64,000 bases of DNA. It comes from Semisulcospira habei (Eukaryota > Mollusca > Gastropoda > Semisulcospiridae). The notes under the pieces were generated by a model, which was given only the letters and a program-made list of their open reading frames with translations, was not told where the DNA came from and did no database searches. The translations under genes were made by a program, and so were the position numbers. Where the stretch lies: assembly GCA_036245525.1 (NCBI GenBank), contig BTPG01000001.1, forward strand, positions 217,189,621 to 217,253,620, written 5' to 3'. Position 1 is the stretch's first letter, and each line of letters opens with the position of its first letter. This document shows, piece by piece, positions 19,820 to 54,094 of the stretch.

Positions 19820-20148
19820 GTCTGTAGACCGCCAGGTATAAATTTTAGAGGGTACACATACTCCCATCTGAGCATAATAGAGGGTCCGCAAATTTATTTA
19901 AGAAAAACTGCATCATCTGTATGTTTTGTTAAAAATAAATTAACTCATTTTGCTCTCTTTCCTCTTTAATTTTGATGTGACACTGTTTGTGTCATGATAC
20001 TGATTTTTTAACTGTTGAACAGCCTGTCTCCCTCTCCCTCTCTCACAGAAAAACATGCATTTATCTGCATGATCATTTGATAATGTATTGTAACAGAGAA
20101 TATAGCCTTTCTGCTCAATGCAGATTGACAACCAAAGTCTGACTAATC

Positions 20149-20150
<2 letters not shown>
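19820..20150. other. No gene recognised
   Basis: AT-rich flank of element A. No homology to the matching flank of copy B is seen, so the left end of copy A is lost. Confidence 0.4.

Positions 20151-20232
<82 letters not shown>
20151..20232 (+). repeat. (CT)n microsatellite cutting copy A
   Basis: About 40 CT units. It replaces the 3' part of the coiled-coil gene of copy A; homology to copy B ends exactly where the tract begins. Confidence 0.9.
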
Positions 20233-20235
<3 letters not shown>

Positions 20236-20958
20236 AATCTGCAAATCATTTAATCTGTGTTGGATTCTTTCTTTCATTTCTGTGTCTGCTGTAGCCAGTT
20301 TCTCTTTTTCACGTTCTATGTGTTTATCAAGCTCACCCAGTTTGGCAACATTGTTTACCATCTCACCTCTTATTGTCTGCAGTGATTTATCCAACCCTAT
20401 AATCTCCCGCATTGACAAAGGTGGGTCATCTATTGTTTTCAAAGCGTCATTTATTTGTCCTTCAGTAAATGAGGTTTCTTGTATCACAGTGTTTGCTATT
20501 TCTGGTAGGCTTGTTACAGGTGCCATTTCAATTTGTTGCCCTGTTGGCAACTTTGTTTGCGTGTCGTGGAGGGCACTAACCAGTCTTGGCGTGACAGGAG
20601 ACCCACCAATACCAAGTTGACGCAAGGCACCAACACCACCTTCATTTTTTATTGTACTTAAAGCCCTAAACCTACTAGGGTCTTTTTTGTTAGTCAATAG
20701 TACTTTTCCTTTGTCAACAGTATTTAAATATAAATGACCCTTGCCATCAAGTTCAAACTGATTAGGATCTACGTTGTCTGGGTGGCCACCAACATGATCA
20801 TAAAATGAGTTCACTTTGGTTTCTAAAAGTTCGTGACGTAAACTGTAAATATTTCTTGTACCAGTCATATCTGCCATATCTGTCATATCTGTTGTATTAC
20901 CAAAATCATACGTGTCATCCATTTCAAAATCTTCATGATTAAATCCTCCCGCGGCCAT
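20233..20958 (-). pseudogene. Coiled-coil/membrane structural gene, 5' part, copy A
   Basis: The first ~242 codons, from MAAGGFNHEDFEMD, match the gene at 55419-56661 of copy B closely. They hold the ALHDTQTKLPTGQ and SFTEGQINDALKTI segments and a coiled-coil stretch (GELDKHIEREKEKLATAD). The 3' third, with membrane segments in copy B, is replaced by the (CT)n tract, read here as an artificial ER/ER tail. The gene is divergent to the capsid gene with 41 bases between the starts. It is probably a minor virion protein; this is inference from conservation beside the capsid gene. Confidence 0.75.
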
Positions 20959-20999
20959 TGTTTTATTAATTTATTATTTTTTTATTGTGCATAATAAAA

Positions 21000-22283
21000 A
21001 TGGCACAGTCTTACGGATCAAAGTTAGACCCATACAGAAAACTACGTGAGCCTCTGGGTGTTAAGGGCGTTAGACAATCAATCGTCATCACAAACAATCC
21101 AAGTACCATAGACCAGAATCAAACACTTACAGTCAAGTTTCCAAACCTAGGTTCCAGTGACGTTATTGTTCCTGGCACTGCTCGCCTAGCATTTAATATC
21201 GAACTATCATCAGACGCAGATGTAAACAGAACACTGGTTGACAATCTTGGCAGAGCAATTGTTAGGACTATTAAAGTAAAACTTGAAGGACAGGAAGTGT
21301 TTAGTCTTGACGACTCCGATGTATTTTACTGTTACAAAGACCTTTGGCTCACAAGAGAAGAACGAGAAGATCGTATTTACCAAGGCATACAATCTGATAA
21401 TGTTGGTAAACTTCGAATCAATGCTGGAGATAAATCAACGTCAGCAGCCCAGGACGTTATTATAGCAGAAACATATGGAACCAGATTTTACATTCCACTT
21501 GAGTTTGAAATCCTAACAGCTCATTTGCCTTATTATCAAGGGGCACTGAATGACCGTCTGAGCTTTGAACTAACTTTCAATGACTACTCCAAAGTTATAA
21601 AATCATCTGCCACAGATGCAACATATAAGATCTCTAACATTTCTTTGGAATATGAAATTGTCACACATACTGAACTAGCCAGACTCATTCAAAATCAGTA
21701 CCAGTCAAGACTTCCAATTTATTATGACCGTGTGATTAGACATAGTTTAATACCCAAAGACAAAAGCGACCCAATGTGGAACATAAACTTGAACACACCT
21801 GCCAGGTCACTGAAAGGTATTCTTATGTTGTTTGTTGAACCGGTGAGTCCATACAAAAGAGATTCAGAAAAAGTCTACAATCCTAAGATTACACATTTGT
21901 CTTGCACAATTGAAGGCCGCCCTAATCAAGTGTATGCTTCTGGAATGCTGCCTTATCAACACTACGATGAGATCACAAAGTTTTTTGCGGGTGGAAGGAT
22001 TAGAGATAAACCTGCAAACATTGCGTGCAAAGATCTACATCTGTATGACGTAAGGATTGGTCAATACCTTACAAACAAATATGCTCTTTGGTTAGACCTT
22101 CGTAGTACAGACGACGACTACCTTCATGGGTCAGGTCGAACTGTTGAGAACGGCAGTGATGGAATAACAATTCAGATACAAAAAAAGGTTGAAACTGCTG
22201 CAGCAATAAATATATATTTGTACCTGATATATGACGCACAACTCAATATACAAGACAGTAGACTGAGTGGACACATATATTAA
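21000..22283 (+). CDS. Major capsid protein (double-jelly-roll type), copy A
   Basis: An intact 427-codon gene. The start is the ATG in AATAAAAATGGC at 21000. Family marks include a glycine- and proline-rich opening, NNPSTIDQNQTL, the DLWLTREERED segment (about residue 120), and a C-terminal half with LARLIQNQYQSRL, NTPARSLKGILMLFVE, CTIEGRPNQVYASG and ALWLDLRSTDD. This is the capsid family found with ATPase and polymerase in invertebrate Polintons/adintoviruses; it would form hexameric capsomers. It shares a 41-base divergent intergenic region with the coiled-coil gene and is followed after 19 bases by the ATPase gene. It is ~90% alike by eye to the broken gene of copy B. The double-jelly-roll fold is inferred from family, not seen. 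Confidence 0.8.
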   Translation: MAQSYGSKLDPYRKLREPLGVKGVRQSIVITNNPSTIDQNQTLTVKFPNLGSSDVIVPGTARLAFNIELSSDADVNRTLVDNLGRAIVRTIKVKLEGQEVFSLDDSDVFYCYKDLWLTREEREDRIYQGIQSDNVGKLRINAGDKSTSAAQDVIIAETYGTRFYIPLEFEILTAHLPYYQGALNDRLSFELTFNDYSKVIKSSATDATYKISNISLEYEIVTHTELARLIQNQYQSRLPIYYDRVIRHSLIPKDKSDPMWNINLNTPARSLKGILMLFVEPVSPYKRDSEKVYNPKITHLSCTIEGRPNQVYASGMLPYQHYDEITKFFAGGRIRDKPANIACKDLHLYDVRIGQYLTNKYALWLDLRSTDDDYLHGSGRTVENGSDGITIQIQKKVETAAAINIYLYLIYDAQLNIQDSRLSGHIY

Positions 22284-22302
22284 AATTATATTGTGTATTA
22301 AA

Positions 22303-22914
22303 ATGAACCGTAGCTTGATGACCCTTGACCCACACTGTGGATTATTTTGTGGCACCACAGGGTGTGGGAAAACTGAATTTGTTCTTAACCTCTTACAAAC
22401 AAGATACATACACCACTTTGAAAACATTGTAATATTTTGTCCTACAATCAAACACAACAAAGCTTATCACAACCGTTTATTCATTTGGACTGACAGTAAC
22501 ATATACTTAGTTGACCCTGAGAAAAAACTGAATGACTACCTACAATATTTTTACAAGCAATTTGAAGGACAGTCAACTTTGTTTATTGTTGATGACTGCT
22601 CTGCAGAGAAAGACATTGTCAAGAAGAGAAACACATTAGCAGAACTTGCTTTCAGTGGTAGACATGCAAACGTCAGTGTATGGATTCTCACTCAGAAATA
22701 TAATGCTGTACTGAAAGATTTTCGAGAACAGTTAAAGTTTATCTGTTTGTTTTACTGCAAGGATCGTGACAGCTTTGAAGACTGTCTCAGAGAAAATGAT
22801 GTCATACCAAATAAACATGAACGTGATGATGTAAAAAATAAACTGAAATCAACTAAGCATCTAAAGCTCATTTTAAAGACAGATCAGCCCACAGGGTATG
22901 GGTTAGTAAATTAA
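22303..22914 (+). CDS. FtsK/HerA-A32-like genome-packaging ATPase, copy A
   Basis: An intact 203-codon gene; the ATG at 22303 follows GTGTATTAAA. The Walker A motif is GTTGCGKT at about residue 18, right after DPHCGLFC. Walker B is TLFIVDDCS near residue 95. A conserved R/K-rich segment, SGRHANVSVWILTQKYNAV, follows and may hold the sensor region. Small ATPases of this type pump DNA into preformed capsids of Polinton-like and other double-jelly-roll viruses. Both this and the copy B gene are open, which suggests recent origin or selection. Here it is followed by the small-gene block, whereas in copies B and D it is next to the MTD gene. Confidence 0.85.
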   Translation: MNRSLMTLDPHCGLFCGTTGCGKTEFVLNLLQTRYIHHFENIVIFCPTIKHNKAYHNRLFIWTDSNIYLVDPEKKLNDYLQYFYKQFEGQSTLFIVDDCSAEKDIVKKRNTLAELAFSGRHANVSVWILTQKYNAVLKDFREQLKFICLFYCKDRDSFEDCLRENDVIPNKHERDDVKNKLKSTKHLKLILKTDQPTGYGLVN

Positions 22915-22954
22915 TTTTTGTTTTTTGTTTTGTTTTTTTAAAATAACAATATAG

Positions 22955-23482
22955 ATGAACCCTGATGAAATCCTTCTATTGAATGATATTAATGCTGTAG
23001 AGAACAAAGACTTAGACTCGAAAAAACAGCGTCTTTTGTCTGTAATTGTCTCAGGCAAGTCAAAGACTTATCTCGGTAAACAATACATGACAGAGGATAT
23101 TGAATCTCTTACGGCTGATGAGCTAATCAAGCTTCATTCAAAATATGAAAACCACATCGCTTCACTAATGACACGTGATTTAAGCCGTTCTCTTGTATGC
23201 CTATACACAAAAGCAGTGAGTCACTTTCTACCTGTGGATAGTGACAGTCTTTCACATGACCTTGAAAGCAATCCTATTGTTTCAAGTTCAATTGGCAAAT
23301 TAGCATGCATCATGTTTTACAAGTTTGGAAATTACCTTGCACCTGTCGTAACATTGCTTGTTACCGGGAGTCATATTGATTTTTCGAAAATAAATTTTAC
23401 TGCAGAAGAAAATGGACGAAACCCAGACGACTCCACAACTGAACCCCGACCCTGTTTTGACACAGGTTCAAACTGTGACTAA
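22955..23482 (+). CDS. Conserved Polinton-associated protein of unknown function (MNxDE gene), copy A
   Basis: A 175-codon gene starting MNPDEILLLNDINAVENK. Features are a Lys-rich KTYLGKQYMTEDIESLTADE region, a DLSRSLVCLYTKAVSHFLPV helix and a C-terminal hydrophobic LAPVVTLLVTGSH. Homologues open copies B (46797) and C (39373, minus), each next to the terminal repeat; here it follows the ATPase because of the inversion. Its last 71 bases overlap the next gene in another frame, and its tail after INF is variable. Similar proteins occur in other invertebrate Polinton-like elements, but the role is unknown. Confidence 0.65.
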   Translation: MNPDEILLLNDINAVENKDLDSKKQRLLSVIVSGKSKTYLGKQYMTEDIESLTADELIKLHSKYENHIASLMTRDLSRSLVCLYTKAVSHFLPVDSDSLSHDLESNPIVSSSIGKLACIMFYKFGNYLAPVVTLLVTGSHIDFSKINFTAEENGRNPDDSTTEPRPCFDTGSNCD

Positions 23483-23876
23483 GGCTAAAAGTCCAGGCAG
23501 GGTTGATGCAGGAAAAAGATTAGCCGAATGGAACAGGCAGAAAAAAATACAGCTTCAAGCACAAACAGAAAAGACTCATGTAACTGATCCACCGTCAGGA
23601 CCGTCAGGACCGTCAGGACCTGTGTCAATACCGTCACTCCCTCATCAAAGTGAGAGACAAACAACCCAGTCTAACCCTGACCCCGAACCTCAAACAACAA
23701 AATATATAATTGCCGGATTTGTTGTCGGATTTGGTTATGTAGGTTATCAATTATATAAAAAATACAAACCACAGACTCGTACAGTGACCAAAAAATCAGA
23801 CACTCCAAAAACAAAACCAGAAGTCGCCACATTACCAGTAACACCCAAAGCCATTGACCCATTTTATATGCAGTAA
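23412..23876 (+). CDS. Pro-rich single-pass membrane protein, copy A
   Basis: A 154-codon gene starting MDETQTTPQLNPDP. The N-terminal part has KSPGRVDAGKRLAEWNRQKK, a basic motif found at the same place in the copies at 47263 and 38530. A (GPS)n-like Pro/Ser/Gly linker follows, then a membrane segment (YIIAGFVVGFGYVGYQLY, about residues 97-114) and a basic tail (KKYK). The linker length differs between copies. Small Pro-rich membrane-anchored proteins of this kind accompany capsid genes in Polinton-like elements and may be virion components; function not established. Confidence 0.65.
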   Translation: MDETQTTPQLNPDPVLTQVQTVTKAKSPGRVDAGKRLAEWNRQKKIQLQAQTEKTHVTDPPSGPSGPSGPVSIPSLPHQSERQTTQSNPDPEPQTTKYIIAGFVVGFGYVGYQLYKKYKPQTRTVTKKSDTPKTKPEVATLPVTPKAIDPFYMQ

Positions 23877-23911
23877 ATAAAAATATTATTTTAATTTTTC
23901 TTGCCTAAGAA

Positions 23912-24142
23912 ATGAATGACACAAAGAACATAATGAACCTTGTGTATCACTCTGCCGTAATCAGTGGATTAGCAGTAGCTTATTCTATGCTAGGAAAAAG
24001 TCTACTCAAAATGAAATCAGCAGACCTCAGTAGACTCGATTTTGAAGACAGCCCTAAGCTAATTGTAGTTGTCACAGCGTCAATTGCGACAAAAAACTTT
24101 CTTGTCAAGCAGGGAATTATTCCTGAAAATGTTTCTATGTAA
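23912..24142 (+). CDS. Small conserved membrane protein (MNDTK gene), copy A
   Basis: An intact 76-codon gene, very similar to 47788-48018 and 38264-38494. It has two hydrophobic stretches (VYHSAVISGLAVAYSMLG and IVVVTASIATKNFLV) separated by a polar KSADLSRLDFEDSPK and ends QGIIPENV. All three copies in the window are open although their neighbours are broken; its small size makes that partly expected. Probably a membrane or virion membrane-associated protein. It lies 35 bases after the Pro-rich gene and 9 bases before the next. Confidence 0.65.
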   Translation: MNDTKNIMNLVYHSAVISGLAVAYSMLGKSLLKMKSADLSRLDFEDSPKLIVVVTASIATKNFLVKQGIIPENVSM

Positions 24143-24151
24143 ATAAAAACT

Positions 24152-24585
24152 ATGGCGACTTTAGCAGTAATAATTGGAGGCGCGATGGTCAACGCCCTAG
24201 CATTTAGTGGCTCAAACTATCTCTTTTCAAAAGTAGGCAGAGAGGAATCTGCAGAAGAAATGAAACGTCACAATGAGGCATCTGAAAAACTTGCTCAAGC
24301 CCAGCAGGATTATGAAAAGAATAGAATTGAGAAACTTGATTTCATCAATGAAAAACTGAGGCTAGAAGGTCACGCACAACATACGTTTTCAAATACAGAC
24401 GAAGCAATCAGGGAATATTTTTAGTCACAGGTGAAGACATGTCTATACCGAAACCAAAACTAAGTGACTATTACAAACCAAGCTCAGAACAAAGAAACGG
24501 GGAGATAATCTTTGTTCTAGTGGGAATGACATTTGTTTATTTTACAGGAGTTTTCATTGCTAGAAAAAATGACAGCCGAAAATAA
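24152..24585 (+). pseudogene. Membrane/coiled-coil small protein with frameshift (MATLA gene), copy A
   Basis: The gene starts MATLAVIIGGAMVNALAFSG (an N-terminal hydrophobic segment), followed by a charged helix with RHNEASEKLAQAQQDYEK, FINEKLRLEGHAQHTF and, beyond the break, LSDYYKPSSEQRNGEI and a C-terminal membrane segment. The open frame stops at 24424 because a T-run at 24417-24422 is one base shorter than needed; other copies read through. The distal frame would end at 24585, overlapping the integrase start by 17 bases. Real mutation or a homopolymer sequencing error are both possible. Confidence 0.65.
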
Positions 24586-25534
24586 ACTATCGAAAATATA
24601 TTACTCCCCATCAGGGTACTGGAAAAGTAACACCGCTATTCAGAAATTACATGCCGCTGTGGGCGGAGATATAACACTCAATCAGGTCAAACAATGGTTA
24701 CAAAGACAGGCAATTTGGCAAATATATCTCCCTGCTCCAAGAAAGATATCTAGACCCCATTTTCAAAACACATCACCAAATGACACACACCAAATGGACC
24801 TCCTGTTCCTACCACATGACACAATAAGAAAGAAACGATACAAGTATGCACTGACTGTTGTAGACATTGCTTCAAGATATAAAGACGCTGAACCCATATC
24901 TGACAAAACAGCTACCACTGTTGCTACAGCATTATCAAAAATATATAGTCGAGGCCCTTTAAGATACCCCAGACTAGTGCAGGTTGATGACGGATCTGAA
25001 TTTAAGGGCGCTGTTAATCAGTTATTTGCTAAGCATGGCGTACTGGTCAGACGAGGCATTCCAGGTGTGCACAGATCACAGGCAATTGTAGAGAACTTTA
25101 ACAAACAGTTATCAGAAAGACTTTTCAGCTATCAGTATTCTAAGGAACTCATGCATGACACACGTAACACTGAGTGGGTTAAGAGATTACCACATGTGAT
25201 AAAAGCAATGAACAATGAAGGTCATCCTAAGCCAGCTGATGCTATTAAATTGAAATCAATTGCAGAGCCAAAAACAGGACCAACCCCCGCACCAGACACA
25301 AGTTTATTTACTAAACAGGTGAGATATTTATATCAACCAGGTGAGGCTGAGAATGACGACAGACGCAGGGCGACAGACCCCATCTGGTCCACGTCTGTAC
25401 ACAATATAAAAAAAATAATTCCTGGTGCTGACGCAACAATATATTATCTGTATGACCCTGCACCCCAGAGGGCATTTGTCAGAGAAGAATTACAGATTAT
25501 TCCCCCAGACACCGTTACTCATTTCAGTAACTAA
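24569..25534 (+). CDS. rve-family integrase, copy A
   Basis: An intact 321-codon DDE integrase. The ATG at 24569 (MTAENKLSK) is preferred; the upstream frame has only a TTG. The catalytic core shows D77 (HQMDLLFL), D140 (VQVDDGSEFKG) and E175 (SQAIVENFNKQ), giving a D-x62-D-x34-E spacing typical of retroviral-like integrases of Polintons. The N-terminal region (YWKSNTAIQKLH, residues ~18-30) resembles a winged-helix part; no HHCC zinc site is seen. The C-terminal part has YLYQPGE and IYYLYDPAPQRAF. It would join element ends to target DNA. The stop at 25532-25534 overlaps the convergent polymerase gene end. Confidence 0.9.
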   Translation: MTAENKLSKIYYSPSGYWKSNTAIQKLHAAVGGDITLNQVKQWLQRQAIWQIYLPAPRKISRPHFQNTSPNDTHQMDLLFLPHDTIRKKRYKYALTVVDIASRYKDAEPISDKTATTVATALSKIYSRGPLRYPRLVQVDDGSEFKGAVNQLFAKHGVLVRRGIPGVHRSQAIVENFNKQLSERLFSYQYSKELMHDTRNTEWVKRLPHVIKAMNNEGHPKPADAIKLKSIAEPKTGPTPAPDTSLFTKQVRYLYQPGEAENDDRRRATDPIWSTSVHNIKKIIPGADATIYYLYDPAPQRAFVREELQIIPPDTVTHFSN

Positions 25535-28500
25535 CTCATTAATTAATTCATCAACCAGTTCATCAGCTATGTCTTCAGATAACTTGAGCCTGTAATGACC
25601 AGGTGCATAAGCTTTTTCCTTAGTGTGAAACACACGCTTTGTGTCCCCAACTGCAAGTGACTTTTTTGTGTGTTTGGATCATTTCAAGATTATGTTTGTT
25701 TGATCTCAGTGACTTGTTTGGATAATCAGGCATCAATGCACCATCTAACACTTGCTTGTAATGTTCATGACGAATGTCTTTATTTTTTATCGCTGTTTTT
25801 TTTATTCCTTTGGCTTTCGACTGACTTCCCTTCTGGTGCAGTATAGAATACATTTTTGATCTCAGTCCAACGTACTCAACTATTGGCACACCATTTAGTT
25901 CATCTTTAAACTTACCAGGCACTTTTTTGTTTTGTGTGCTGAACAGTGGGTGGTCTTTAGGATAGTCAGACGTGTCATACATGTGTAACTCTGTTTTCAT
26001 GTCTTCATAAAAGTCTTCAGTACACACATCAATGATCATAGAGTCAGTGTCAGTGTATAGCAGACGACACTCAGGATATTTTGGTTTGAAGTAATCATAA
26101 TAAAATTCAAGCATCAACAGTTTTGAGAACTCAAGAATTGCCATACCAATGAATACTGGCTTGTCCAGTTTAACAATCTTTTTTTTGAGTGACACAGCAT
26201 ACAATGATGAATGAAACTCTTTCTACCCTGTGTACTGTGGCTTACCTGTAAGTTTAATTGCACCCGATTCAGTTGTGACCAGTCTCACATGTTTGCGGTG
26301 ATGAGGATTTTCCATAGTCTTACCAAAACAGGCATTGTTCATAAGCTTAAAGAAGTCTTTGTCAAATGCAGTGTTGCCGTCCCTGGCACGCAATGTTGTG
26401 TTCTTCATTATGTAATCTTTCATGAAAGCACTCTGATCAAATTGAATACCCCTGTGAACTTTCTTCAGTACTAACCCATGTCTGATGTAAAACTGAAGCA
26501 AGCAGTAGTGACAAACGTAATTAAATTTGTCATTCAGATTTGGTACAAGTTTAGTGTCTTCTTTTTTCCCTGTCATACTCATTTTCTCAACAGCTAAGGG
26601 ATAATCATTATGGTAATCATGTAGATGGTGTGGGTACTCTAGGTCTACTTCAAAGATCCAACCCTTCGCGTCGTTTCGGTCAAGATTCATAATATTGTTT
26701 GTTAACCCTGACTCTGTTACATCATACTGTGACAAATCATACAGACAAAAGTTTTTCAAGGGCAATAACTCACACATTGCCCAGCCATACAAATGGTTAG
26801 CGTCTACATACGTAATGAATGACCTTGACCTCGAGGGGTCAAACCCAAGGTCACCATGTCCGTCCAGATATTTGTTGTTGGCCTTGGCATAATTGTTCGC
26901 TGCAATACTTATCCCACCCCTCAATCCACGTTCCACCATTTCACCCATCGTACGATCAGACAACAGGTCTATAGATATCTTACTGGATTTCAAAAATGCA
27001 TCCCATGTCATGCCAGGACTAGTTATGCAACAGGCAGGGTCAAGCTTGTAGTGCAACAAACCCTTTTCACGGTAACTTTCAAATACGTCTGCTGGCAAAC
27101 AAACGTCAGCTTTCAAGTACTGGTCATGATAGTCACCAATTGTTTGACATCCTAACTTCCCCCACGCATCAAGTGCGTGTTGGTATTCAGAGTCAGAAAT
27201 ACCTTTACCAGTTAGTGTAGAATAAAATTTCTCTTTTGGTGGCAGTCTTGTTTCCTCAAACACAACCCAGTGATCAATGTACTCGTACGGATAAACACCT
27301 TTCTTAATCAAGTCTGGTTCAAAATATTTACTCGTTATTGGATACTCAGTCAGTCCTTCTGCCAGACTAGCAAGACCTAAAGACAAATGTTGCATGGAGT
27401 CATAAAATGCTAATTTGATGTCCAATCTAAAAGTCAAGTACTTCTCAGTTGTCTGGGCAATGAAACTAATTTTTTTGTAAGACTCATCTACAGCCTGCAT
27501 GATAATGTGTGAATCATACCCTTTGAGATTGTGGAAAAAGATTGGTAACTTATATGTCTTAGGATCTGTTTTTAATAACAAGTTACATTTGTTATGTGCA
27601 GCACCTCTGTAACATCCAGTTATGTGATCATGGTCACGAACTTTATCACCCTGGAGGGGTTGCTCACAAACCCAACACATCTCAGCTGTATCAAATTTCA
27701 GTTTGTCTTCTTCTGTCATCACCAAAGGCATCTGACATGTTGTGAGATACTGTACTACCTGACTATACAGATGTCTCATTTCTGTTAAAAACAGACATGC
27801 TGCATTTTCACCCCTGTAGATAACAGGTTTTGAATGCTGACCATCTGACCTAACAATAATGTATCCAAAAGAACACACCACTTGGTCACTCAACTTTACA
27901 GTCTTTGGTAATGACTCTGGAACAGGACCTTCATACGGTACTACTAATGATTCAAAATCAGCATACACTACAAACGGCAGCTTTTGTTGATTCCCATAGT
28001 TCTTAAAATAAACTTCACTACCCGGTTCTGGATACTTAAGTACAGTCTGTATGTCATCAGCCGATCTACAGTGTAGGACGTGTTTGTGCGCTACTGAAAT
28101 AGAGGAGAATCTTTGTAAACATCTTTTACACACTTCCTGTTTGCCATTGTGTTTTGTTGTATGTCCATGAATTAGATGTGACATATTTCTGATAATTGTG
28201 TAGTGGAAGTTATTGTTATCACCGGCAGGGCCTATTAGCAACATATCAACATGTCTATCTTCTGACTGCCCATAGGTTGGGGCAATTGGGGACACTCTAA
28301 TTGGTTGTAACTTGTTCTCAGATTCATTATCCCACACAAACACATTTACAGATATACCAGGATTTAATTTTTCAAACAAATCTATGTCTTCTATTTTAAC
28401 AGGGAACTCAATGCCACTGAAGTTGAGTTCATTTACAAATTTAGTGTAGTTAGAAACACGTTCAGGTTTTGATTTTATAAAGTGTAGTTTAGCAAGCACA

Positions 28501-28983
28501 CACCACATGAAACAATAGTTGTCATTGTTCTGTATGTTAACGACAGCCTTTTTGTTTGCAACCTCTGTTGGCAGTGGTATCCATGATTTACCTAATATAG
28601 GATGATACCTTGACTGCTTTAGTTGTAGTTCATGTACATGTCCTTCGTGCCAACCAGATCCTTTCATTCTTGCACTGTCAATTGCTTGGAGGAAGTCAGG
28701 TAATAGTCTGTCTCTAAACACGTTCTCTAATTCTCTTCTTGTGTTAACTGTGTGTTGTCTTGTTGATATGTACGATACAATCACTTCACCGTCTACTCTA
28801 GTAAATTCTATTTTGGCAACAATCTGAATTTTCACACTGCCTGTAAGAAGATTTTGTTGTATTACAGAAAAAGAGTTTTCTATTGATTCATAGACATTGT
28901 TAGTATTAGATATAGGCAAGTTTGTTGTGTGAAACACATTTCTTAAGCTTGATGAGCCTGATGAGCCAGGGTTTTGAACATTG
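25490..28983 (-). pseudogene. Protein-primed family B DNA polymerase, copy A (three lesions)
   Basis: About 1,150 codons. The initiator is ACG at 28981-28983 where copy B has ATG. Counting from the GTG at 28937, motifs are: a C2H2-like finger (CKRCLQRF...HVLHC, ~270-290), exonuclease I YADFES (~325-330), an HNH/endonuclease VII-like CWVCEQ...RDHDHITG...AAHNKCN (421-452), exonuclease II FHNLKGYDSH (~468-477), exonuclease III YHDQYLKAD (~603-611), polymerase A YVDANHLYGW (~710-719) and polymerase B NNACFGKT (~867-874). An in-frame TAG stands at 26223-26225 and the frame continues; polymerase C YTDTDSM is at about 26037-26057. A one-base A-run insertion near 25668 shifts the C-terminal end. These are few lesions for 3.5 kb. 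Confidence 0.9.
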
Positions 28984-29027
28984 TCCGTCGTTTTTATTTG
29001 TCCGACAAAATAATAAATGAAAAAATA

Positions 29028-29372
29028 TTACCGCTGGCTCACCTTGTGTAATACCACTTTATTAACTGTAACACTGTCAATATAAACATTTAGTTTGCGT
29101 AGTTGTTTAAATATGCTATAACAAACTTCCCCTAACCAACCATAGTTGGTATCATCAACTTTAAAAGTAGGTGTCTTTAAATCAACTGTCATGCACTCCA
29201 CATCTGGATGCTCATCGACATAATCCAAAGTCACACTATATGTAGCATATATTTCTGATGGTGCTGAAAGGCTTATGTTAGTCTGTTTGGGTGATATTAA
29301 ATCAGTAACGTGCATAACATCTTTGAAGCAGTGTGAGATATCAAGCACTTGTATGATTTGTCCGTCTGTCAT
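29028..29372 (-). CDS. MTD small gene, copy A
   Basis: An intact 114-codon gene starting MTDGQIIQVLDISHCFKDV and carrying the family centre (TPTFKVDD) and end (VTVNKVVLH). It lies 44 bases upstream of the polymerase on the same strand. By eye only about a third of positions match the copy B version and somewhat more match the D copies, although polymerase, capsid and ATPase of A and B are nearly identical. Because of the inversion the gene is next to the terminal repeat here. No recognisable domain. Confidence 0.65.
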   Translation of the reverse strand: MTDGQIIQVLDISHCFKDVMHVTDLISPKQTNISLSAPSEIYATYSVTLDYVDEHPDVECMTVDLKTPTFKVDDTNYGWLGEVCYSIFKQLRKLNVYIDSVTVNKVVLHKVSQR

Positions 29373-29396
29373 TTTTTATTAGACAAACAAAAGAAT

Positions 29397-29450
29397 AAAT
29401 TGTTATCAAGCAAAATCATGTTTTCTAGGAAATTACACTGAACAGTAACT
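29397..29450 (+). repeat. Terminal inverted repeat (right end) of copy A
   Basis: Read inward from 29450 the end is AGTTACTGTTCAGTGTAATT and continues through CATGATTTTGCTTGATAACA. This matches the inverse orientation of 46687-46743, the left end of copy B, over about 53 bases with few differences. Homology stops outside. The 5'-AG terminus fits Polinton ends. The left TIR of copy A is missing. Confidence 0.8.
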
Positions 29451-30796
29451 TTTTACGTTTGCACCACTCCAGCAATATTGCCAATAGTTTTTGAGTTTAC
29501 CCCAGACAAGACTTGCCCTGTACTATATTATCTCTCTCAGTGGGCTTATTAATATCATGCTTCATAGATTTCAATTGTGGTGTCATGTACAATAATCCTG
29601 TCCTTTAAAGCAAACTGGTTATCACTGTGTACACACTGTACTCGCCTATACATAAATTCTTTTCACACCTTTAGAATTCTGAGTGCAGATGGTTCAATCA
29701 TGTGTGAACACGACTAATATCCTTTTTCGAGTATATGTCTTGTATGACAAAAAGCCTTCCTGTTGACTACATCATTCACTAAAATCCAGACTGTGTGTTA
29801 AATTTCTGAGCAGTACACCGCATTGTACACATACTAACACATGCACACAGACAGGCAGACATACTAACACATGCACAAACATGCATATTATCATATTTAT
29901 ACATAAACAAAAACATTAAGCCTACCTTGCTAAACACGTATACCCGTAACATCTCGGCATGGCGACACACTGACAGAGCTGGTTTTTCTCAAACATTTTT
30001 CAATTTCCAAACCAGCCAGCTAACTTTTCACAGTGCCCACACACATACAATTTCAGTACACTATGCCACATAAACCCTTGCGTGCATAGGCACGACTTTT
30101 CCTGAGAAATTATGACGAGACTGATTTCGGTGCAAACACGTGCAGGTGACTCATTGCTAGTAAACAAAATGACAGCTTTTCTATGTTAAATGTACACAGG
30201 TTTAAACAGGGCATGTAATAGCACACACATCTATATAGACGTTTAAATCGGGCCTCTCTCTGTGTGAGGTGACTATGCCTCATTCATGTTACCTACAGAC
30301 GGTACCAAGGGTAACAACACAAACATTAGTAAGCAGACGACAGGCCCATTCAGCCAAACAAAAGAGCGATGACATTATCGCTTGAATATTATGTCGTAAC
30401 AAATATTCATAAATCTTGGAGCCTTCATGAGTTCGGCAGAGTATTCGAAACTGAATTGTTAATCTGTCAAAAGCATGTCGCCAAGTTTCAAAACTTACTC
30501 ATAATGAGGGCCCTGAGAGTACAGCTGACTGAATTGTTGCACAATAGAGTCAAGCCCGGGGGCCCAGGGGCTCTTGAGGATCTGTTGTTTATGTACTCAG
30601 TCAGGTGTCTGTATAAAGCAGTGAGTAATGTGTCTATTTTTAGCTTGAAAGCGTAGTTACAGTCTAAACATGTACACCACCCACCAGTGCGTGAACTTGA
30701 ATAAAAGTTATTATCGTCTCACGCCAGCTGGTGTGTTTCAATGGCTCGCGTCAGGCATGTTCAGTCGGTTATGCACTCGGAAGAAATATCTTACAA

Positions 30797-30798
<2 letters not shown>
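29451..30798. other. No gene recognised
   Basis: Unique-looking sequence with no convincing coding signal and a few short CA-rich patches (29830-29870). It contains a CpG-poor, AT-rich start and a short GGCCCGGGGGCCCAGGGGCT-like GC patch near 30555. Confidence 0.4.
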
Positions 30799-30834
<36 letters not shown>

Positions 30835-30909
30835 TGTCTGTAGTTATGTGTGTATGTGTGTGCGTGTGTGTGTGTGTGTTGGGATGTGTGTGTGTGCGTG
30901 CGTGTGCGT
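30799..30909 (+). repeat. (GT)n microsatellite
   Basis: Interrupted GT repeats into which the retroposon at 30922 inserted. Confidence 0.85.
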
Positions 30910-31313
30910 GTGTGTGTTAGTGATTGATTGTACATTGCTTAACGTCCCGACAGCAACAAGGCTTTCTCAGGACGTGCCTGCACTGCTTGTGAAAAAAAAA
31001 AAAAAAAAAAAAAACTAAACAGAACATTGAATGTATGTCACCAGCCGGTCAAATACATTAAATAAACCTAACACATGAGGCCTAAATAAAGCTAAGACCA
31101 TTTAGCAACACACATCCAATATCAAGAGCTACAGGCAGTGCAGACAGTAGGGAGAGTTTTAAAAAGGCAAATACAGGTGAATGGACCTCGGGTAGACAGA
31201 AACACATGCCCCAGAATAGAGAGAAAAACTCACCCTGTGGGGCTGACCAGGGTGACCCTGAGAACTAAAAAGTACCTAACCCCACCCAAGTCCCCCAGGG
31301 CGTGTGTGTTAGT
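30910..31313 (+). mobile_element. SINE-like retroposon, copy 2, with 12-bp TSD
   Basis: The unit 30922-31301 is homologous to 19441-19805 and is flanked by GTGTGTGTTAGT at 30910-30921 and 31302-31313. It differs from copy 1 by a longer A-run (about 30980-31012) and a ~35-base local duplication around AAATAAACCTAACACATGAG. Confidence 0.8.
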
Positions 31314-31740
31314 ACTGCTTATAATAGAACGGTGGAGTAACGACCTTGTACTGACTGTGTTGTACAAATATACATAAGACGGCAGTCACCTTTTCAGAAA
31401 TTGTACTTGCAGTAAAATAATATTAAACAGGACCCGTCAACATACTCACTACGAGAGAGCTAACAGAAAAAAGTAGACTAATACTTGTAAACACGGCTTA
31501 TGTCTGGAGTCCGAGACTCTTGAGGATCTGACCTGTGTCCACTTATAAAAATCTAGGCTCGTGAGAATCATAGTCTCTGTAAAACCCCGGTACAAGGCAG
31601 GCAGCTATTGGGGGGTTTTAGTCTGTAATCGAATTATACTTCCTGGTTCAGTGTTTACTGTAACTATGGGTTCAGAGCTTTAGGGTAAAGTTCATAAACA
31701 TGGCCATGGTCGCGATTTTTAAAACAAATTAACAGTACAT
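31314..31740. other. No gene recognised
   Basis: AT-rich sequence without visible structure. Confidence 0.4.
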
Positions 31741-31982
31741 GTTTAAGTGTTGTCAGAGACAATAGTTATAGAGAGAGACAATAAGAGAGTACTAATGTAT
31801 CAAAAATCAAAAAGGCCGCACTAATCATGGTCGCCACTTTTTCAAAAAACAAAAGGGTGATTATGTGGTAATAGAGAGGTTATGTGATGTAATATATTTT
31901 CTTATCAATAAAGGCGACATTTAATGATGGGTGCGGCCTTATTGAAATTTGATTCTTAGTACTTTCTTATTGTCTCTCTCTG
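31741..31982. mobile_element. MITE-like element with ~70-bp inverted arms, copy 1
   Basis: Inverted arms start AGAGAGAGACAATAAGAGAG on the left (31770) and, read inward from 31982, AGAGAGAGACAATAAGAAAG. The similarity continues for about 70 bases through AAGGCCGCAC and the GTCGCC block, so the RNA or single strand would fold into one long hairpin. A second copy is at 61161-61400. Homology between copies extends ~30 bases left of the arms. No coding capacity, and no clear target duplication. Confidence 0.7.
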
Positions 31983-46796: not shown

Positions 46797-47270
46797 ATGA
46801 ATCAAGACGAACTTATTTTGTTGAATGATATCAATGCGGTAGAGAACAAAGATTTAGACTCGAAACGACTTTTATGTGCAGTGGTCTCTGGTAAATCCAG
46901 CGTGTATCTTGGAAAACAATATACGACTCAAGATATAGAATCCCTCATGGCTGATGAATTAATTAAACTTTATGCTAAATATGAAAATTATATGGCTTCA
47001 TTAATGACTAGGGATCTGAGCAGATCTCTTGTTTCTATTTATTCATAAGTTGTCAGTCATTTTTTTGAAGTAGATGATACTGACAGATTAAGCAGTGACT
47101 TGGGGTCAAATCCCATAATTTCAAGTTCAATCGGCAAATTAGCTTGCCTCATGTATTACAGGTTTGGTAATTTGCTTGCGCCCATGGTTACTTTGCTTGT
47201 CACTGGGAGTCATATTGATTTTTCGAAATTAAATTTGTTTGGAAAAGAAACTGATGTAGCAAATGGATGA
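46797..47270 (+). pseudogene. MNxDE gene, copy B (one nonsense codon)
   Basis: Starts MNQDELILLNDINAVENK; the ATG follows TTATAAA. An in-frame TAA at 47046-47048 replaces a Lys codon of copy A, after which the frame stays open to TGA at 47268-47270. The last 8 bases overlap the next start (ATGGATGA). It is the first gene after the terminal repeat. Confidence 0.7.
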
Positions 47271-47754
47271 CCAACAGACGACCTCACAACAGAACCCTGT
47301 CTTGACGCAGGTTCAAACGATCACTAAACCAAAAAGTCCAGGAAGGGTAGAGGCTGGAAAACGATTAGCCGATTGGAATAGGCAAACAAAATTAGAGCTT
47401 AAGGCGCTAACAGAAAAGGTTCATGTAACTGACCCGCCGTCAACAGCACCAGCTTCAGCACCAGTGTCACTACCGTCAGGACCATCAGAACCAACACCGT
47501 CAGGACCCTCTTCCCCACCACACCCATATCAAAGTGAAAAACTATCAACCCAGTCTAACCCCGAACCTGAAATAAAAAGATATATAGTTGCCGGATTTGT
47601 TGTCAGATTTTGTTACACAGGTTACCAATTATACAAAAAGTACAAAACACAGACTCGAACAGTGTCCAAAATAACAAGCACTCCATCATCAAAAACAGAA
47701 GTCGCCACATTAACAGTAAAACCCAAAGTCGTGGACCCATTTATCATGCAATAA
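47263..47754 (+). CDS. Pro-rich single-pass membrane protein, copy B
   Basis: An open 163-codon gene starting MDDQQTTSQQNPVLTQ. It keeps KSPGRVEAGKRLADWNRQTK, a longer Pro/Ser linker than copy A (extra TAPASAPVSLPSG), the membrane segment YIVAGFVVRFCYTGYQLY and the basic KKYK tail. One Gly of the copy A membrane segment is Arg here, which would weaken the helix. Expressed from the same strand as the integrase. Confidence 0.65.
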   Translation: MDDQQTTSQQNPVLTQVQTITKPKSPGRVEAGKRLADWNRQTKLELKALTEKVHVTDPPSTAPASAPVSLPSGPSEPTPSGPSSPPHPYQSEKLSTQSNPEPEIKRYIVAGFVVRFCYTGYQLYKKYKTQTRTVSKITSTPSSKTEVATLTVKPKVVDPFIMQ

Positions 47755-47787
47755 TAAATTTTTTATTTAATTTTTATTGCCTAAGAA

Positions 47788-48018
47788 ATGAGCGACTCAA
47801 AAGAATTGATGAACCTTGTCTATCACTCTGCTGTAATTAGTGGACTAGCTGTTTCTTACTCTATGCTTGCAAAAAGTCTACTTAAAATGAGATCAGCAGA
47901 CCTCAGTAGATTGGATTTCGAAAACAGTGCAAAGCTAATAACAATTGTCACAGCTTCAATTGCGACGAAAGACTTTTTTGTTAAGCAAGGAATTATTCCA
48001 GAAAATGTTTATATGTAA
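47788..48018 (+). CDS. Small conserved membrane protein (MNDTK gene), copy B
   Basis: Open, 76 codons, starting MSDSKELMNLVYHSAVISG and ending VKQGIIPENVYM. Conserved hydrophobic and polar segments as in copies A and C. Its stop is 12 bases before the MATLA start. Confidence 0.65.
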   Translation: MSDSKELMNLVYHSAVISGLAVSYSMLAKSLLKMRSADLSRLDFENSAKLITIVTASIATKDFFVKQGIIPENVYM

Positions 48019-48029
48019 ATAAAATAAGT

Positions 48030-48666
48030 ATGGCGACTTTAGCAGTAATAATTGGAGGGGCAATGGTTAATGCCCTGGCATTTAATGGGTCAAACTATCT
48101 CTTTTCAAAAGTGGGTAGAGAGGAATCAGCAGAAGAATTAATACAATACAATACAATACAATACAATACAATACAATACAATACAATAATACTTTATTAA
48201 TCCCTCATGGGGAAATTCACTAGACGTGTAGATTATGAAAAAAACACTAAAACATTGACACAAGGCAGATGTGTCGCCGCTACCGCAGCGCCATTTTATA
48301 TCCAGCCGCTACCGCAGCGCCATTTTATTTTATATTATATAAAGCGACATAATGAGGCATCAGAAAAACTTGCACAAGCCCAGCAGGATTATGAAAAGAA
48401 TAGAAGTGAGAAACTTGATTTCATCAATGAAAAACTTCGTCTAGAAGGTCACGCGCAACATACATTTTCAAATACCGATGATGCAATCCGTGAGTATTTT
48501 CTCGTCATGTGTAATGACATGTCTATCCCAAAACCGAAACTAAGTGACTATTACAAACCAAGTACAGAACAAAGAAATGGAGAGATAATCTTTTGTTCTA
48601 GTGGGAATGACATTTGTATTTTTTACTGGTCTTTATATTGCTAGAAGAAATGAATGTCGAAAATAA
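48030..48666 (+). pseudogene. MATLA membrane/coiled-coil gene, copy B (interrupted)
   Basis: MATLAVIIGGAMVNALAFNG leads to REESAEE at 48137, where a ~208-base insertion interrupts. The gene resumes at about 48346 (RHNEASEKLAQAQ) and runs through LSDYYKPSTEQRNGEI. One extra T near 48592 then shifts the last membrane segment out of frame; the original frame would stop at 48664-48666, overlapping the integrase start by 17 bases as in copy A. Confidence 0.7.
48138..48345 (-). mobile_element. Short retroposon with (AATAC)n tail
   Basis: An (AATAC)n run of about ten units is followed by TTTATTAATCCCTCATGGGG and AAATTCAC. In inverse this is the GGGGATTAATAAAGTATT-(GTATT)n end typical of CR1/L2-group LINEs and their SINEs. 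A 27-base segment (CCGCTACCGCAGCGCCATTT) is duplicated at 48276 and 48306. It disrupts the MATLA gene. Confidence 0.65.
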
Positions 48667-49623
48667 ACTATCAAAAATATATTACTCCCCAATTGGATAT
48701 TGGAAAAGTAACACCGCTATTCAGAAATTACACTTGGCCATAGGCGGTGATGTATCACTCAATCAAATAAAACAATGGTTACAGAGACAGGCAATTTGGC
48801 AGATATATTTACCTGCTCCAAGAAAAGTAATAAGACCTCATTTTGAAAACACAACACCAAATGACACCCATCAAATGGATTTATTGTTCCTACCCCATGA
48901 CATAATAAGAAAAAAGTGTTACAAGTACACACTGACTGTCGTTGATATAGCTTCAAGGTACAAAGACGCTAAACCAATAACTGACAAGAATGCTACCACA
49001 GTTGTGACAGCGTTAACAAAGATATATAGTCGTGGTTCTTTAAAATACCCTAGACTCGTTCAGGTCGATGACGGAAGTGAATTCAAGGGTGCCGTTAATC
49101 AGTTATTTGCGAAGCATGGCGTACTGGTTAGACGCGGCATTCCAGGCGTTCACAGATCACAGGCAATTGTAGAAAATTTATATAAGCAATTATCGGAGAG
49201 GCTTTTCAGCTACCAGTATTTAAAGGAACTCATGCATGACACACGTAACACTGAGTGGGTAAAGAGATTACCATCTGTGATAAAAGCAATGAATAATGAA
49301 GGCCATATGTGAAGCCTGCTGATGCTATTAAATTGAAAACAATTACAGAGCCAAAAACAACAGCCCAGGCCCCGTCACCGCTGACGCCAGACACAAGTTT
49401 ATTTACTAAACAGGTAAAATACCTATATCAACCAGGTGAGTCTGAAAATGACGTCAGACGCAGGGCAACTGATCCAATATGGTCCACGACCATTCATAAT
49501 ATTTAAAAAATAATTCCCAGCGCTGACGCGTCAATATATTACCTGTACGAACCAGCCCCTCAGAGGGCATTTGTCAGAGAAAAATTACAGATTATTCCCC
49601 CTGACACTGTTACTCACTTTTGA
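48650..49623 (+). pseudogene. rve-family integrase, copy B
   Basis: Starts MNVENKLSKIYYSPIGYWKS. Catalytic D (HQMDLLFL), D (VQVDDGSEFKG) and E (SQAIVENLYKQL) are all present. A short insertion at about 49307 gives a TGA and frameshift; the rest is open in another frame to TAA at 49504-49506, which replaces a Lys codon, then open to TGA at 49621-49623. The end overlaps the convergent polymerase stop by 14 bases. Confidence 0.85.
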
Positions 49624-52600
49624 CCAATTCGTAAATCAGTTCATCAATCAGTTCATCACAAATACCCTCAGATAACTTAAGTCTGTAATGGCCAGGTGCA
49701 TAAGCCTTTTCCTTACTGTGAAACACATGTTTTATGCCCCCAACTGCAAGTGACTTTTTATGTGTTTGGATCATTTCAAGATTGTGTTTGTTTGATCTCA
49801 GTGACTTGTTTGGATAATTGGGCATCAGTTGTCCATCTAACACTTGCTTATAATGTTCATGACAAATGTCTTTATTTTTAATCGCTGTTTTTTTTTTTAT
49901 ACCTTTGGCTTTCGACTGACTACCTTTCTGGTGCAGTATAGAATACATTTTTGATCTCAGTCCAACATACTCAACTATCGGCACACCATTCAGTTCGTCT
50001 TTAAACTTTCCAGGCACTTTCTTGTTTTGTGTGCTAAACAATGGATGATCTTTTGGGTAGTCAGACGTGACATACATGTGTAACTCTGTTTTAATGTCTT
50101 CATAAAAGTCTTCAGTAGGCACATCTATAATCATAGAGTCAGTGTCGGTGTATAGCAGACGACACTCAGGATACTTCGGTTTGAAGTAATCATAATAAAA
50201 TGCAAGCATTAACAGTTTTGATAAACTCAAGAATTGCCATACCAATGAATACTGGCTTGTCCAGTTTAACAATTATTTTTTGAGTGACACTGCATACAAT
50301 GATGAATGAAACTCTTTGTACCCTGTGTACTGTGGCTTACCTGTAAGTTTAATTGCACCCGATTCAGTTGTGATTAGTCTCACATCTTTGCGGTGATGAG
50401 GATTTTCCATAGTCTTCCCAAAACAGGAATTGTTCATTAGCTTAAAGAAGTCTTTGTCAAATGCAGTGTTGCCGTCTCTGGCACGCAATGCTGTGTTCTT
50501 CATTATGTAATCTTTCATGAAAGCACTCTGATCAAATTGAATGCCTCTATGAACTTTCTTTAGTACTAACCCATGTCTGATGTAAAACTGCAACAAGCGA
50601 TAGTGGCAAACGTAATTGAATTTGTCATTTAGATTTGGCACAAGTTTAGTGTCTTCTTTTCCCCCATCAAACTCATTTTCTCAACAGCTAAGGGATAATC
50701 ATTGTGGTAATCATGTAGATGGTGTGGGTACTCCAGGTCTACTTCAAAGATCCAATCCTTTGCATCATTCTGGTCATGACTCATAATAATGTTTGTTAAC
50801 TCTGTTATGTCATACTGTGACAAATCATGCAGGCAAAAGTTTTTCAAGGGCAATAACTCACACATCGCCCAGCCATACAAATTGTTCGCGTCTACATACG
50901 TAATGAATGACCTTTTCCTTGAGGGGTCAAAGTCAAGGTCATCCAGATATTTGTTGTTGGCTTTGGAATAATTGTTCGCGGCAATACTAATGCCGCCTCT
51001 CAATCCATGTTCCACCATTTCACCCATCGTACGATCAGACAACAGGTCTATAAATATCTTACTGGATTTCAAAAATGCATCCCATGTCATTCCAGGACTA
51101 GTTATGTAACAGGCTGGGTCAAGACTGTAGTGCAACAAACCCGTTTTTACGATAACTTTCAAATATGTCTGCTAGCAAGCAAACGTCAGCTTTCAAATAC
51201 TGGTCATGTTAGTCACCAATTGTTTGACACCCTAGTTTACCCCATGCATCAAGTGCATGTTGATAATCAGAGTCAGAAATACCTTTACCATTAAGTGTAG
51301 AATAAAATTTCTCTTTTGATGGCAGTCTCCTTTCTTCAAACACAACCCAGTGATTAATTTACTCGTACGGATACACACCTTTCTTGATTAACTCAGGCTC
51401 AAAATATTTACTCGTTATTGGAAATGATGTCAGACCTTCTGCCAGACTAGCCAACCCTAAAGACAAATGTTGCATCGAGTCATAAAACACTAATTTGTTG
51501 TTCAGCCTAAAAGTCAAATATTTTTCAGTTGTCTGCGCAATACAACTAATGTTTTTGTAAGACTCGTCTACAGCAAGCATTACAATGTCACACCCCTTTA
51601 GATTGTGGAAAAAGATTGGTAACTTATATGTCTTAGGATCTGTTTTTAATAGCACGTTACACTTGTTATGTGCAGCACCTCTGTAGCGTCCAGTTATGTG
51701 ATCATGGTCACGAACTTTATCACCTCCCAGAAGTTGTTCACAAATCCAACACATCACAGCTGTATCAAAATTTAGTTTGTCTTCTTCTGTCATCACCAAA
51801 GGCATCTGGCATGTTGTGAGATAATGTACTACCTGACTATACAGATGTCTCATTTCTGTTAAAAACAAACAAGCTGCATTTTCCCCTCTGTAGATAACAG
51901 GCTCTGAATGCTGCCCGTCTGACCTAACAATAATGTATCCAAAAGAACACACCACTTGGTCACTCAACTTTATAGTCTTTGGTAATGATTCTGGAACAGG
52001 TCCATCATATGGAACAACCAGTGATTCAAAATCAGCATACACTACAAACGGCAGCTTTTGCTGATTCCCATAGTTCTTAAAATATACTTGACTCCCAGGA
52101 TATGGGTACTTAAGTACAGTTTGAATGTCATCAGCTGACCTACAATGTAAAACATGTTTGTGTGCCACTGCAATAGAGAAGAATCTTTGTAAACATATTT
52201 TACACACTTCCTGTTTGCCATTGTGTTTTGAAACATGATTATGAATTAGACGTGACATACTCCTGATAATTGTGTAGTGAAAGTTATCATTATCACCAAT
52301 TAATAACATGTCAACATGTTTATCTTCTGGCTGTCCATAGGTTGGAGCAAGTGGTGATACTCTAATTGGTTGTAACTTGTCAACAGACTCATTATCCCAC
52401 ACATACACGTTCACAGATATGCCAGGATTAGGTTTTCAAACAAGTCTATGTCTTCTATTTTAACAGGGAAATCTATACCACTGAAATCGAGTTCGTTTAC
52501 AAATTTGGTGTAGTTAGATACGTGATCAGGTCTTGTTTTTACAAAGTGTAGTTTAGCAAGCACACACCACATGAAACAATAGTGGTCATTGTTCTGTATA

Positions 52601-53042
52601 TTAACAACAGCCTTTTTGTTTGCAACCTCTTTTGGCAGTGGCAACCATGATTTACCTAATATAGGATGATACCTTGACTGCTTTAGTCGTAGTTCATGCA
52701 CACGGCCTTCGTGCCAACCAGACCCCTTCATTCTTGCTTTTTCAATTGCTTCAAGAAAGTCAGGTAACAGTCTGTCTCTAAACACGTTTTCCAATTCCCT
52801 TCTTGTGTTAACTGTGTGTTGTCTTGTCAAGATATACGATACAATCACTTCACCGTCTACTCTAGTAAATTCTATTTTGGCAACAACTTGAATTTTTACA
52901 CTGCCTGTATGACAGAAAAAGAGTTTTCTATCGATTCATAGACATTGTTACTATTGGATATAGGCAAGTCTGTTGTGTGAAACACGTTTCTTAAGCTTGA
53001 TTGACTTGTCGAGCCTGATGAGCTTTGAGCATTGTCTGTCAT
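49610..53042 (-). pseudogene. Protein-primed family B DNA polymerase, copy B
   Basis: The proper ATG (MTDNAQSSSGS) is at 53042. The same motif order as copy A is present: C2H2-like finger (~52200), VYADFESL (~52050), HNH-like CWICEQ...DHDHITGRYRG...HNKCN (~51750-51660), HNLKG (51600, with following residues deleted), YVDANNLYGW (~50890), NNSCFGKT (~50430) and YTDTDSM (~50140). At least five frameshifts or small deletions, at about 52905, 52420, 51360-51160, 50650 and 50273, break it. The C-terminus ELIYELVKSE stops at 49610. Confidence 0.85.
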
Positions 53043-53086
53043 TTTTATTATATGGACAAAATAATAAATGAAAAGAAATACCACTA

Positions 53087-53442
53087 TTACTGTATGTGTA
53101 ATACCATTTTATTAACTGTAATAATGGGAAAATATAAATTTGTTTGGTTTAGTTCTTTCACTAAATCATTACACACTGCACTAAACCAGCCACTGTAATA
53201 TTCAACAGTAAAAGTTTGTGTCTTAATATTAACAGTTATGTTTTTGATTATTGTTGGTCTAAATGGATTATCAACACCCAAAGTTATATTACCTGACATG
53301 TACAGTGTTACTGGTGTTCTAAATAAATTTCCAGGTCTCTCTTTTTTAAGCCCGTTTACATATTTAACATCTTTAAAGTAGTATGTAATATCTAAGATTT
53401 CACCAATAAGCAAAAATATTGTGTGATTTGTCCGTCTGTCAT
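53087..53442 (-). pseudogene. MTD small gene, copy B (frameshift near start)
   Basis: The ATG at 53442 begins MTDGQIT like copy A, but a small indel within the first 20 codons moves the remainder (LDITYYFKDVKYVNGL ... VNIKTQTFTVEYYSGWF ... ITVNKMVLHIQ) to another frame. The rest is open to 53087. Protein similarity to the A and D versions is low compared with other genes. It lies between ATPase and polymerase on the same strand. Confidence 0.65.
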
Positions 53443-53469
53443 TTTTTATGGACAAACCAAAAGTATACA

Positions 53470-54075: not shown

Positions 54076-54094
54076 TTTAATACACAATATAATT

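What the first reader, a model, noticed from the sequence alone, without database searches (positions are those of the whole stretch)
22915..29450. Polinton copy A has its integrase-polymerase block inverted relative to copies B, D and C
From the terminal repeat inward, copy B reads TIR, MNxDE(+), three small genes(+), integrase(+), polymerase(-), MTD(-), then ATPase(-), capsid(-). Copy A, flipped to the same direction, reads TIR, MTD, polymerase, integrase, small genes, MNxDE, then ATPase and capsid in the unchanged orientation. Copies D (ATPase-MTD-polymerase on one strand) and C (TIR-MNxDE) agree with B. Both breakpoints lie in AT-rich intergenic DNA with short AAATT/AATTT words that pair as inverted repeats. 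Either two stable element lineages exist or the block can flip, changing which genes lie beside the terminus.
Basis: seen in the sequence. Interest (0 to 1): 0.75.

Follow-up and report, generated by a model that had tools for sequence, protein, structure and literature searches.

The report
Abundant inverted-module subfamily of Maverick elements
In this animal genome a virus-like jumping element (Maverick/Polinton) exists in two gene arrangements that differ by one internal flip of a 6.5-kb gene block, and the flipped form is not a one-off accident but a subfamily with hundreds of copies that most likely descends from a single flip.

Summary
The inversion is real. In copy A the block MNDE–integrase–polymerase–MTD runs opposite to copies B and D relative to ATPase/capsid. 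It is not a misassembly: the C3:208.4-Mb element has the same order and junctions and is complete, with TIRs and a 6-bp target-site duplication. Exact junction patterns match 470 (A-type ATPase→MNDE), 483 (A-type outer→MTD) and 1,660 (B-type ATPase→MTD) places genome-wide, controls 0. On contig C1, 42 of 71 A-type first junctions pair correctly with a second one, against 1 wrong pair. Junction uniformity suggests one inversion, then amplification; interiors of the two forms still recombine. Active flipping is not supported: no reverted copy was seen (10 of 20 sampled B-order copies readable), and block-end words do not exceed chance. Copy C lacks the ATPase side and does not vote. Orientation differences between vertebrate Maverick lineages are published; here both forms coexist in one genome.

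The parts
20146..20958 (-). REV: open frame on the strand opposite to the capsid gene; start of the capsid-side arm; homology of copy A to other copies stops about 20234, beside a CT microsatellite
   Evidence: tblastn map (found in A, B and the nine fetched copies other than C4:144, pieces 56-94%); end of homology
20985..22283 (+). CAP: double-jelly-roll major capsid protein, 432 aa
   Evidence: AlphaFold model pLDDT 76, pTM 0.82; Foldseek best PBCV-1 capsid E 6e-15, mavirus MCP 6e-12; a 58% relative is named Major capsid protein
22267..22914 (+). ATP: packaging ATPase, 215 aa
   Evidence: Pfam Pox_A32 6.1e-15
22915..22954 (.). Junction J1 (derived): ATPase stop joined to the MNDE start through a T-rich tract and AAATAACAATATA
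   Evidence: 470 exact pattern matches genome-wide, control 0
22955..23482 (+). MNDE: 175-aa protein of unknown function, first gene of the inverted block in copy A
   Evidence: no Pfam or PHROGs match; tree groups A with C3:208 at 100/100
23412..23876 (+). ORF2: small open frame, 154 aa, unknown
24533..25534 (+). INT: rve integrase, 333 aa
   Evidence: Pfam rve 3.4e-11
25620..26204 (-). ORF5: 194-aa open frame, unknown, dN/dS 0.01-0.33 against ten other copies
26223..28937 (-). POL: family-B DNA polymerase, 904 aa
   Evidence: Pfam DNA_pol_B_2 2.3e-10
29028..29372 (-). MTD: 114-aa hypervariable protein, last gene of the inverted block in copy A
29373..29400 (.). Junction J2 (derived): outer segment joined to the MTD upstream spacer
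   Evidence: 483 exact pattern matches genome-wide, control 0
29401..31734 (.).
31735..31981 (.). True terminal repeat of copy A; last bases CTCTCT; ends at 31981
46797..54111 (.). Copy B, same genes in the common order: MNDE(+), INT(+), then ORF5, POL, MTD, ATP all (-)
61155..61400 (.). Terminal repeat of copy B on the capsid/REV side

Best explanation
Copy A is a member of a large Maverick/Polinton subfamily that descends from one element in which the block MNDE-ORF2-INT-ORF5-POL-MTD was inverted between the ATPase and the outer arm. Both breakpoints fell between genes, so the block genes and the ends survived and the element could still be copied and inserted; it then spread to hundreds of loci. 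Mechanism of the flip, inferred: a single end-joining or replication template-switch event in a B-order element, not site-specific recombination. Shown: the order, the shared junctions, a complete insertion with TSD, copy numbers. Inferred: single origin for all the copies, direction B to A, and the joining mechanism.
For: Same two junctions in A (C1) and C3:208; C3:208 element has TIRs and the 6-bp TSD CAAGTG, and the B-order C1:40 element has TSD GGTGTG. Genome counts 470 (J1), 483 (J2), 1,660 (B-order J1), controls 0. On C1, 42 of 71 J1 pair with a correctly oriented J2 at 6.4-10.8 kb, 1 wrong pair. Of 40 sampled ATPase ends, 9 are A-type and 31 B-type. MNDE tree of 11 copies: A and C3:208 together 100/100. 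A versus C3:208 dN/dS 0.08-0.12 for POL, INT, CAP, MNDE, ORF5. Compared with the nearest B-order spacers (C1:40, B), 15-17 nt of spacer appear in neither A junction (read).
Against: The immediate parent (A-lineage MNDE start still beside the outer segment) was not found; the search for it did not complete. 3 of the 100 J1 rows listed (of 470) have a clearly different spacer (TTTAATTACATTATAA) and several more differ by a base; of the three, one has the usual J2 (L090), one stretch missed (L091), one is masked (L092). In the 20 A-type loci read at the expected J2, 10 show it, 1 (L082) has other DNA before MTD, 2 lie inside MTD, 1 is masked and 6 missed. 29 of 71 J1 and 39 of 81 J2 on C1 found no exact partner in range. 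The C3:208 ATPase has 2 nonsense codons and dN/dS 0.27, so that copy is no longer intact. Interiors recombine, so the low dN/dS is not all post-inversion.
Confidence: 0.87

Rival explanations
1. The block is an invertible segment that flips repeatedly, so one element can exist in both orders.
For: Both orders are abundant and share interior alleles: A's MTD has dS 0.043 to the B-order C6:156 copy; a B-order copy at C1:12.6 Mb has an MNDE 98.7% identical to A's over residues 17-175.
Against: Most of the 100 listed J1 rows and all 100 listed J2 rows are of one kind; none of the B-order copies whose MNDE start was read has the A-lineage start (nine; 10 of 20); longest inverted word at the block ends is 8 nt and not above chance; the integrase matches rve and transposase families, and no invertase was found among the frames scanned.
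Confidence: 0.06
2. Copy A is a local misassembly or two elements joined by chance.
For: Copy A lacks its capsid-side end, and copies are roughly 80-95% alike, a source of assembly error.
Against: Same junctions in a complete TSD-flanked element on another contig and in hundreds of other places.
Confidence: 0.02
3. The A order arose several times independently at the same spacers, because mainly flips that spare the genes survive.
For: Spacers are the places where a flip does least harm; a few J1 rows have another spacer.
Against: The shared AAATAACAATATA plus MNDE start ATGAACCCTGATGAA in most listed J1 rows, and the GATAACAA(T)TTAT joint in all 100 listed J2 rows.
Confidence: 0.05
4. A order is ancestral in this family and B order derived.
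For: The root of the MNDE tree is only a midpoint.
Against: B order occurs with several unrelated outer arms and in both main MNDE branches, A order in one pair; B order is 3.5 times as common in exact matches.
Confidence: 0.05

Closest known systems
Vertebrate Mavericks (PMC8097293; section 7 and search passages read)
   Same: PolB, integrase, packaging ATPase, major capsid protein, TIRs (46-1,447 bp there), 6-bp TSD, (AG)3//(CT)3 as one class of ends, 12.7-24.6 kb; two gene modules whose relative orientation differs between lineages (cane toad modules point away from each other, X. tropicalis on one strand).
   Different: There the orientation differs between host species; here two orders of one family, roughly 80-95% alike, coexist in one genome with hundreds of copies each and exchange interior sequence.
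Adintoviruses / animal Polintons (recalled; only a search listing seen)
   Same: Same core gene set by recall.
   Different: No membership test against adintoviruses was made.
Site-specific invertible segments such as the phage Mu G segment or bacterial phase-variation switches (recalled)
   Same: A gene block in two orientations between fixed flanks.
   Different: No recombinase found among the frames scanned, no long inverted repeats at the block ends, spacer DNA apparently lost at one junction.

Membership tests
Polinton/Maverick | Family-B DNA polymerase (viral/organellar type) | tested here: met
   DNA_pol_B_2 2.3e-10, above cut-off; protein priming itself not tested
Polinton/Maverick | Retroviral-type (rve) integrase | tested here: met
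   rve 3.4e-11, above cut-off
Polinton/Maverick | A32-like packaging ATPase | tested here: met
   Pox_A32 6.1e-15
Polinton/Maverick | Double-jelly-roll major capsid protein | tested here: met
Polinton/Maverick | Terminal inverted repeats | tested here: met
   C1:40 ends 91% alike, C3:208 ends 69% alike; copies A and B have only one end found
Polinton/Maverick | 6-bp target-site duplication | tested here: met
   CAAGTG at C3:208, GGTGTG at C1:40; not testable for A or B
Polinton/Maverick | Adenovirus-type protease and minor capsid genes | tested here: inconclusive
   No Pfam match in the other open frames scanned; not folded
Site-specific invertible segment | Inverted recombination sites at both block ends | tested here: not met
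   Longest word 8 nt, within chance
Site-specific invertible segment | Both orientations from one locus | not testable with these tools
   needs reads

The most novel reading that the evidence does not exclude
The two orders are long-lived alternative forms of one recombining population of virus-like elements inside a single host: the flip puts the polymerase/MTD genes, instead of the MNDE-integrase genes, beside the outer arm and so gives two expression programmes, while interior alleles (above all the hypervariable MTD) keep being exchanged across the inversion.
Probability: 0.2. Interest if true: 0.75.

Novelty: new variant of a known kind. Interest (0 to 1): 0.52.

Why it matters
Differences in Maverick module orientation between host lineages are published, but the searches made here showed no case in which their start can be seen. 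Here both states, hundreds of copies each, with nucleotide-level breakpoints, sit in one genome, so the origin, success and recombination of a rearranged virus-like element can be studied directly. It also warns that treating such a family as one element would mix two gene orders.

Tried and rejected
Repeats first taken for TIRs in C5:78 (a SINE-like repeat found in many stretches) and C6:156: not used. Outside contexts: viral contigs gave no relative; genome contigs gave one distant 40% match on a 4.6-kb contig labelled an archaeal MAG, not used. Breakpoint words as recombination sites: not above chance. Sequence search against the PDB: CAP one match at E 0.65, one B frame none. Paper searches for an internal Polinton inversion, judged by titles and abstract starts only: 6 of 6 listed, 20 of 50, 20 of 269, 15 of 464; none of the listed titles names such a case. 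Passages of PMC11071308 and PMC11071296 gave nothing on gene order. The search for the pre-inversion parent did not complete.

Full report
Setting. The window is G000:C1:217189621-217253620 of a 1.98-Gb genome in 507 contigs; contigs C1 to C8 are 178-344 Mb long. Among the named relatives of the proteins are Elysia marginata and MAGs of bivalve symbionts; eight very large contigs would fit a chiton such as Acanthochitona (1n = 8 in PMC12005716, passages seen), but the species was not tested.

The observation. Self-comparison shows A 20242-22930 antiparallel to B 53454-56147, while A 22916-29193 is parallel to B 46757-53240. The block MNDE-ORF2-INT-ORF5-POL-MTD is thus inverted relative to CAP-ATPase. 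Gene identities: POL, INT and ATPase by Pfam; CAP by fold. Copy D agrees with B at ATPase-MTD-POL; copy C has no ATPase side and cannot vote.

Other copies. The ten polymerase matches were fetched as paired stretches. By tblastn one (C4:144) shows only a distant polymerase; eight have ATPase followed by MTD (B order); one, C3:208.4 Mb, has the A order: MTD-POL-ORF5 on one strand, INT-ORF2-MNDE-ATPase-CAP on the other. Its two junctions equal those of copy A apart from tract length and single bases: ATPase stop, T tract, AAATAACAATATA, MNDE start; and GATAACAA(T)TTATTCTTTTGTTTGTC before MTD. Compared with the nearest B-order spacers (C1:40 and B), 15-17 nt between the outer segment and the MNDE spacer are in neither junction (read); as the real parent is unknown this is an inference.

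Ends. A repeat of about 250 bp ends sharply at window 31981, at 61400 in B, and at the corresponding ends of C3:208 and C1:40. C3:208 runs from just after TSD CAAGTG (C3:208417294-208417299) to C3:208436264, about 19 kb; C1:40 from just after TSD GGTGTG (C1:40022214-40022219) to C1:40040699, about 18.5 kb. So a complete insertion of each order exists. The ends of copies A and B carry CTCTCT, as in one class of vertebrate Mavericks (section 7 of PMC8097293). The two TIRs of C3:208 are only 69% alike, one near copy A's (87%), the other near C1:40's (83-85%), a sign of recombination between subfamilies.

Abundance. Junction patterns over the whole genome: A-type J1 470, A-type J2 483, B-type J1 1,660; the backwards controls gave 0 each time. 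A-type is thus 470 of 2,130, 22%, of exact J1 matches; inexact copies are not counted, and the two patterns need not lose equal shares. An independent sample, 40 of the 149 other ATPase matches listed (a capped list), gave 9 A-type and 31 B-type. The lists of both A-type junctions run through all of C1: 71 J1 and 81 J2, of which 42 each pair in the right orientation at 6.4-10.8 kb; one wrong-orientation pair; 29 J1 and 39 J2 found no exact partner in range. Of 20 A-type loci read at the expected J2, 10 show it, one has other DNA before MTD, two lie inside MTD, one is masked, six missed.

One event or many. Most of the 100 listed J1 rows share one spacer; three differ clearly and several by a base. 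All 100 listed J2 rows read GATAACAATTTAT or GATAACAATTAT. In an MNDE tree of 11 copies A and C3:208 group at 100/100. Of 20 B-order copies fetched at the expected MNDE start (three re-fetched), ten starts were read; none has the A-lineage start or the outer segment. Nor do the nine other copies printed have the A-lineage start, though two of them (B and C1:40) have the outer segment. One B-order copy (C1:12.6 Mb) has an MNDE 98.7% identical to A's over residues 17-175 but a B-type 5' end, so interiors cross between the orders while junctions stay. Along copy A the nearest relative changes from window to window.

Function after the flip. A versus C3:208: dN/dS 0.12 POL, 0.10 INT, 0.11 CAP, 0.10 MNDE, 0.08 ORF5, at dS 0.24-0.41; REV 0.30, ATPase 0.27 with two nonsense codons in C3:208, MTD 0.53. 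This fits selection on working elements, with the caveat that recombination mixes pre- and post-flip time. The named block frames of copy A are open, but it lacks its capsid-side arm.

Mechanism. In B order the left breakpoint lies in a spacer of 32 nt between ATPase stop and MTD, the right one in the DNA between the outer segment and MNDE; most other breakpoints in this compact block would cut a gene. The integrase is of rve type; no invertase was found among the frames scanned. Shared words at the parental spacers are within chance. A single end-joining or template-switch event is therefore the likeliest origin; this step is inferred.

Verdict. Real, abundant, inherited through copying; a new variant of a known kind.

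Noticed in passing
window 29028-29372; 1710-3444 (copy D); L019 6964-7662; L023 6110-7728: MTD is hypervariable (dN/dS 0.35-0.87 between A and ten copies, against about 0.1 for most core genes) and occurs in tandem: 4-5 units in D (with a second ATPase end between them), two in C2:102 and C5:78; A's MTD is nearly identical to that of a B-order copy (dS 0.043), as if swapped as a cassette.
   Followed up: partly
L013 3801 to L031 3764 (C3:208.4 Mb): One complete element whose two terminal repeats belong to different subfamilies (69% alike).
   Followed up: partly
G000:C1:97344196 and C1:97350252: An A-type outer→MTD junction lies 6 kb past a B-type ATPase→MTD junction on the same strand; adjacent, nested or dimeric elements.
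   Followed up: no
window 19446-19789 and 30921-31301: SINE-like repeat, also in the flanks of several other fetched copies.
   Followed up: no
L011 1474-4017: 848-aa frame inside the outer arm of the C1:40 element, partly 98% alike to DNA near C2:102; probably a nested transposable element.
   Followed up: no
window 14724-17756: 1010-aa frame with a reverse transcriptase domain.
   Followed up: no
window 10406-12425 and 35872-36837: Related arrays of about 165-nt units in opposite orientation.
   Followed up: no
and one search lists: Relatives of the ATPase and capsid are deposited in MAGs of Candidatus Thiodiazotropha, probably host DNA in symbiont assemblies.
   Followed up: no
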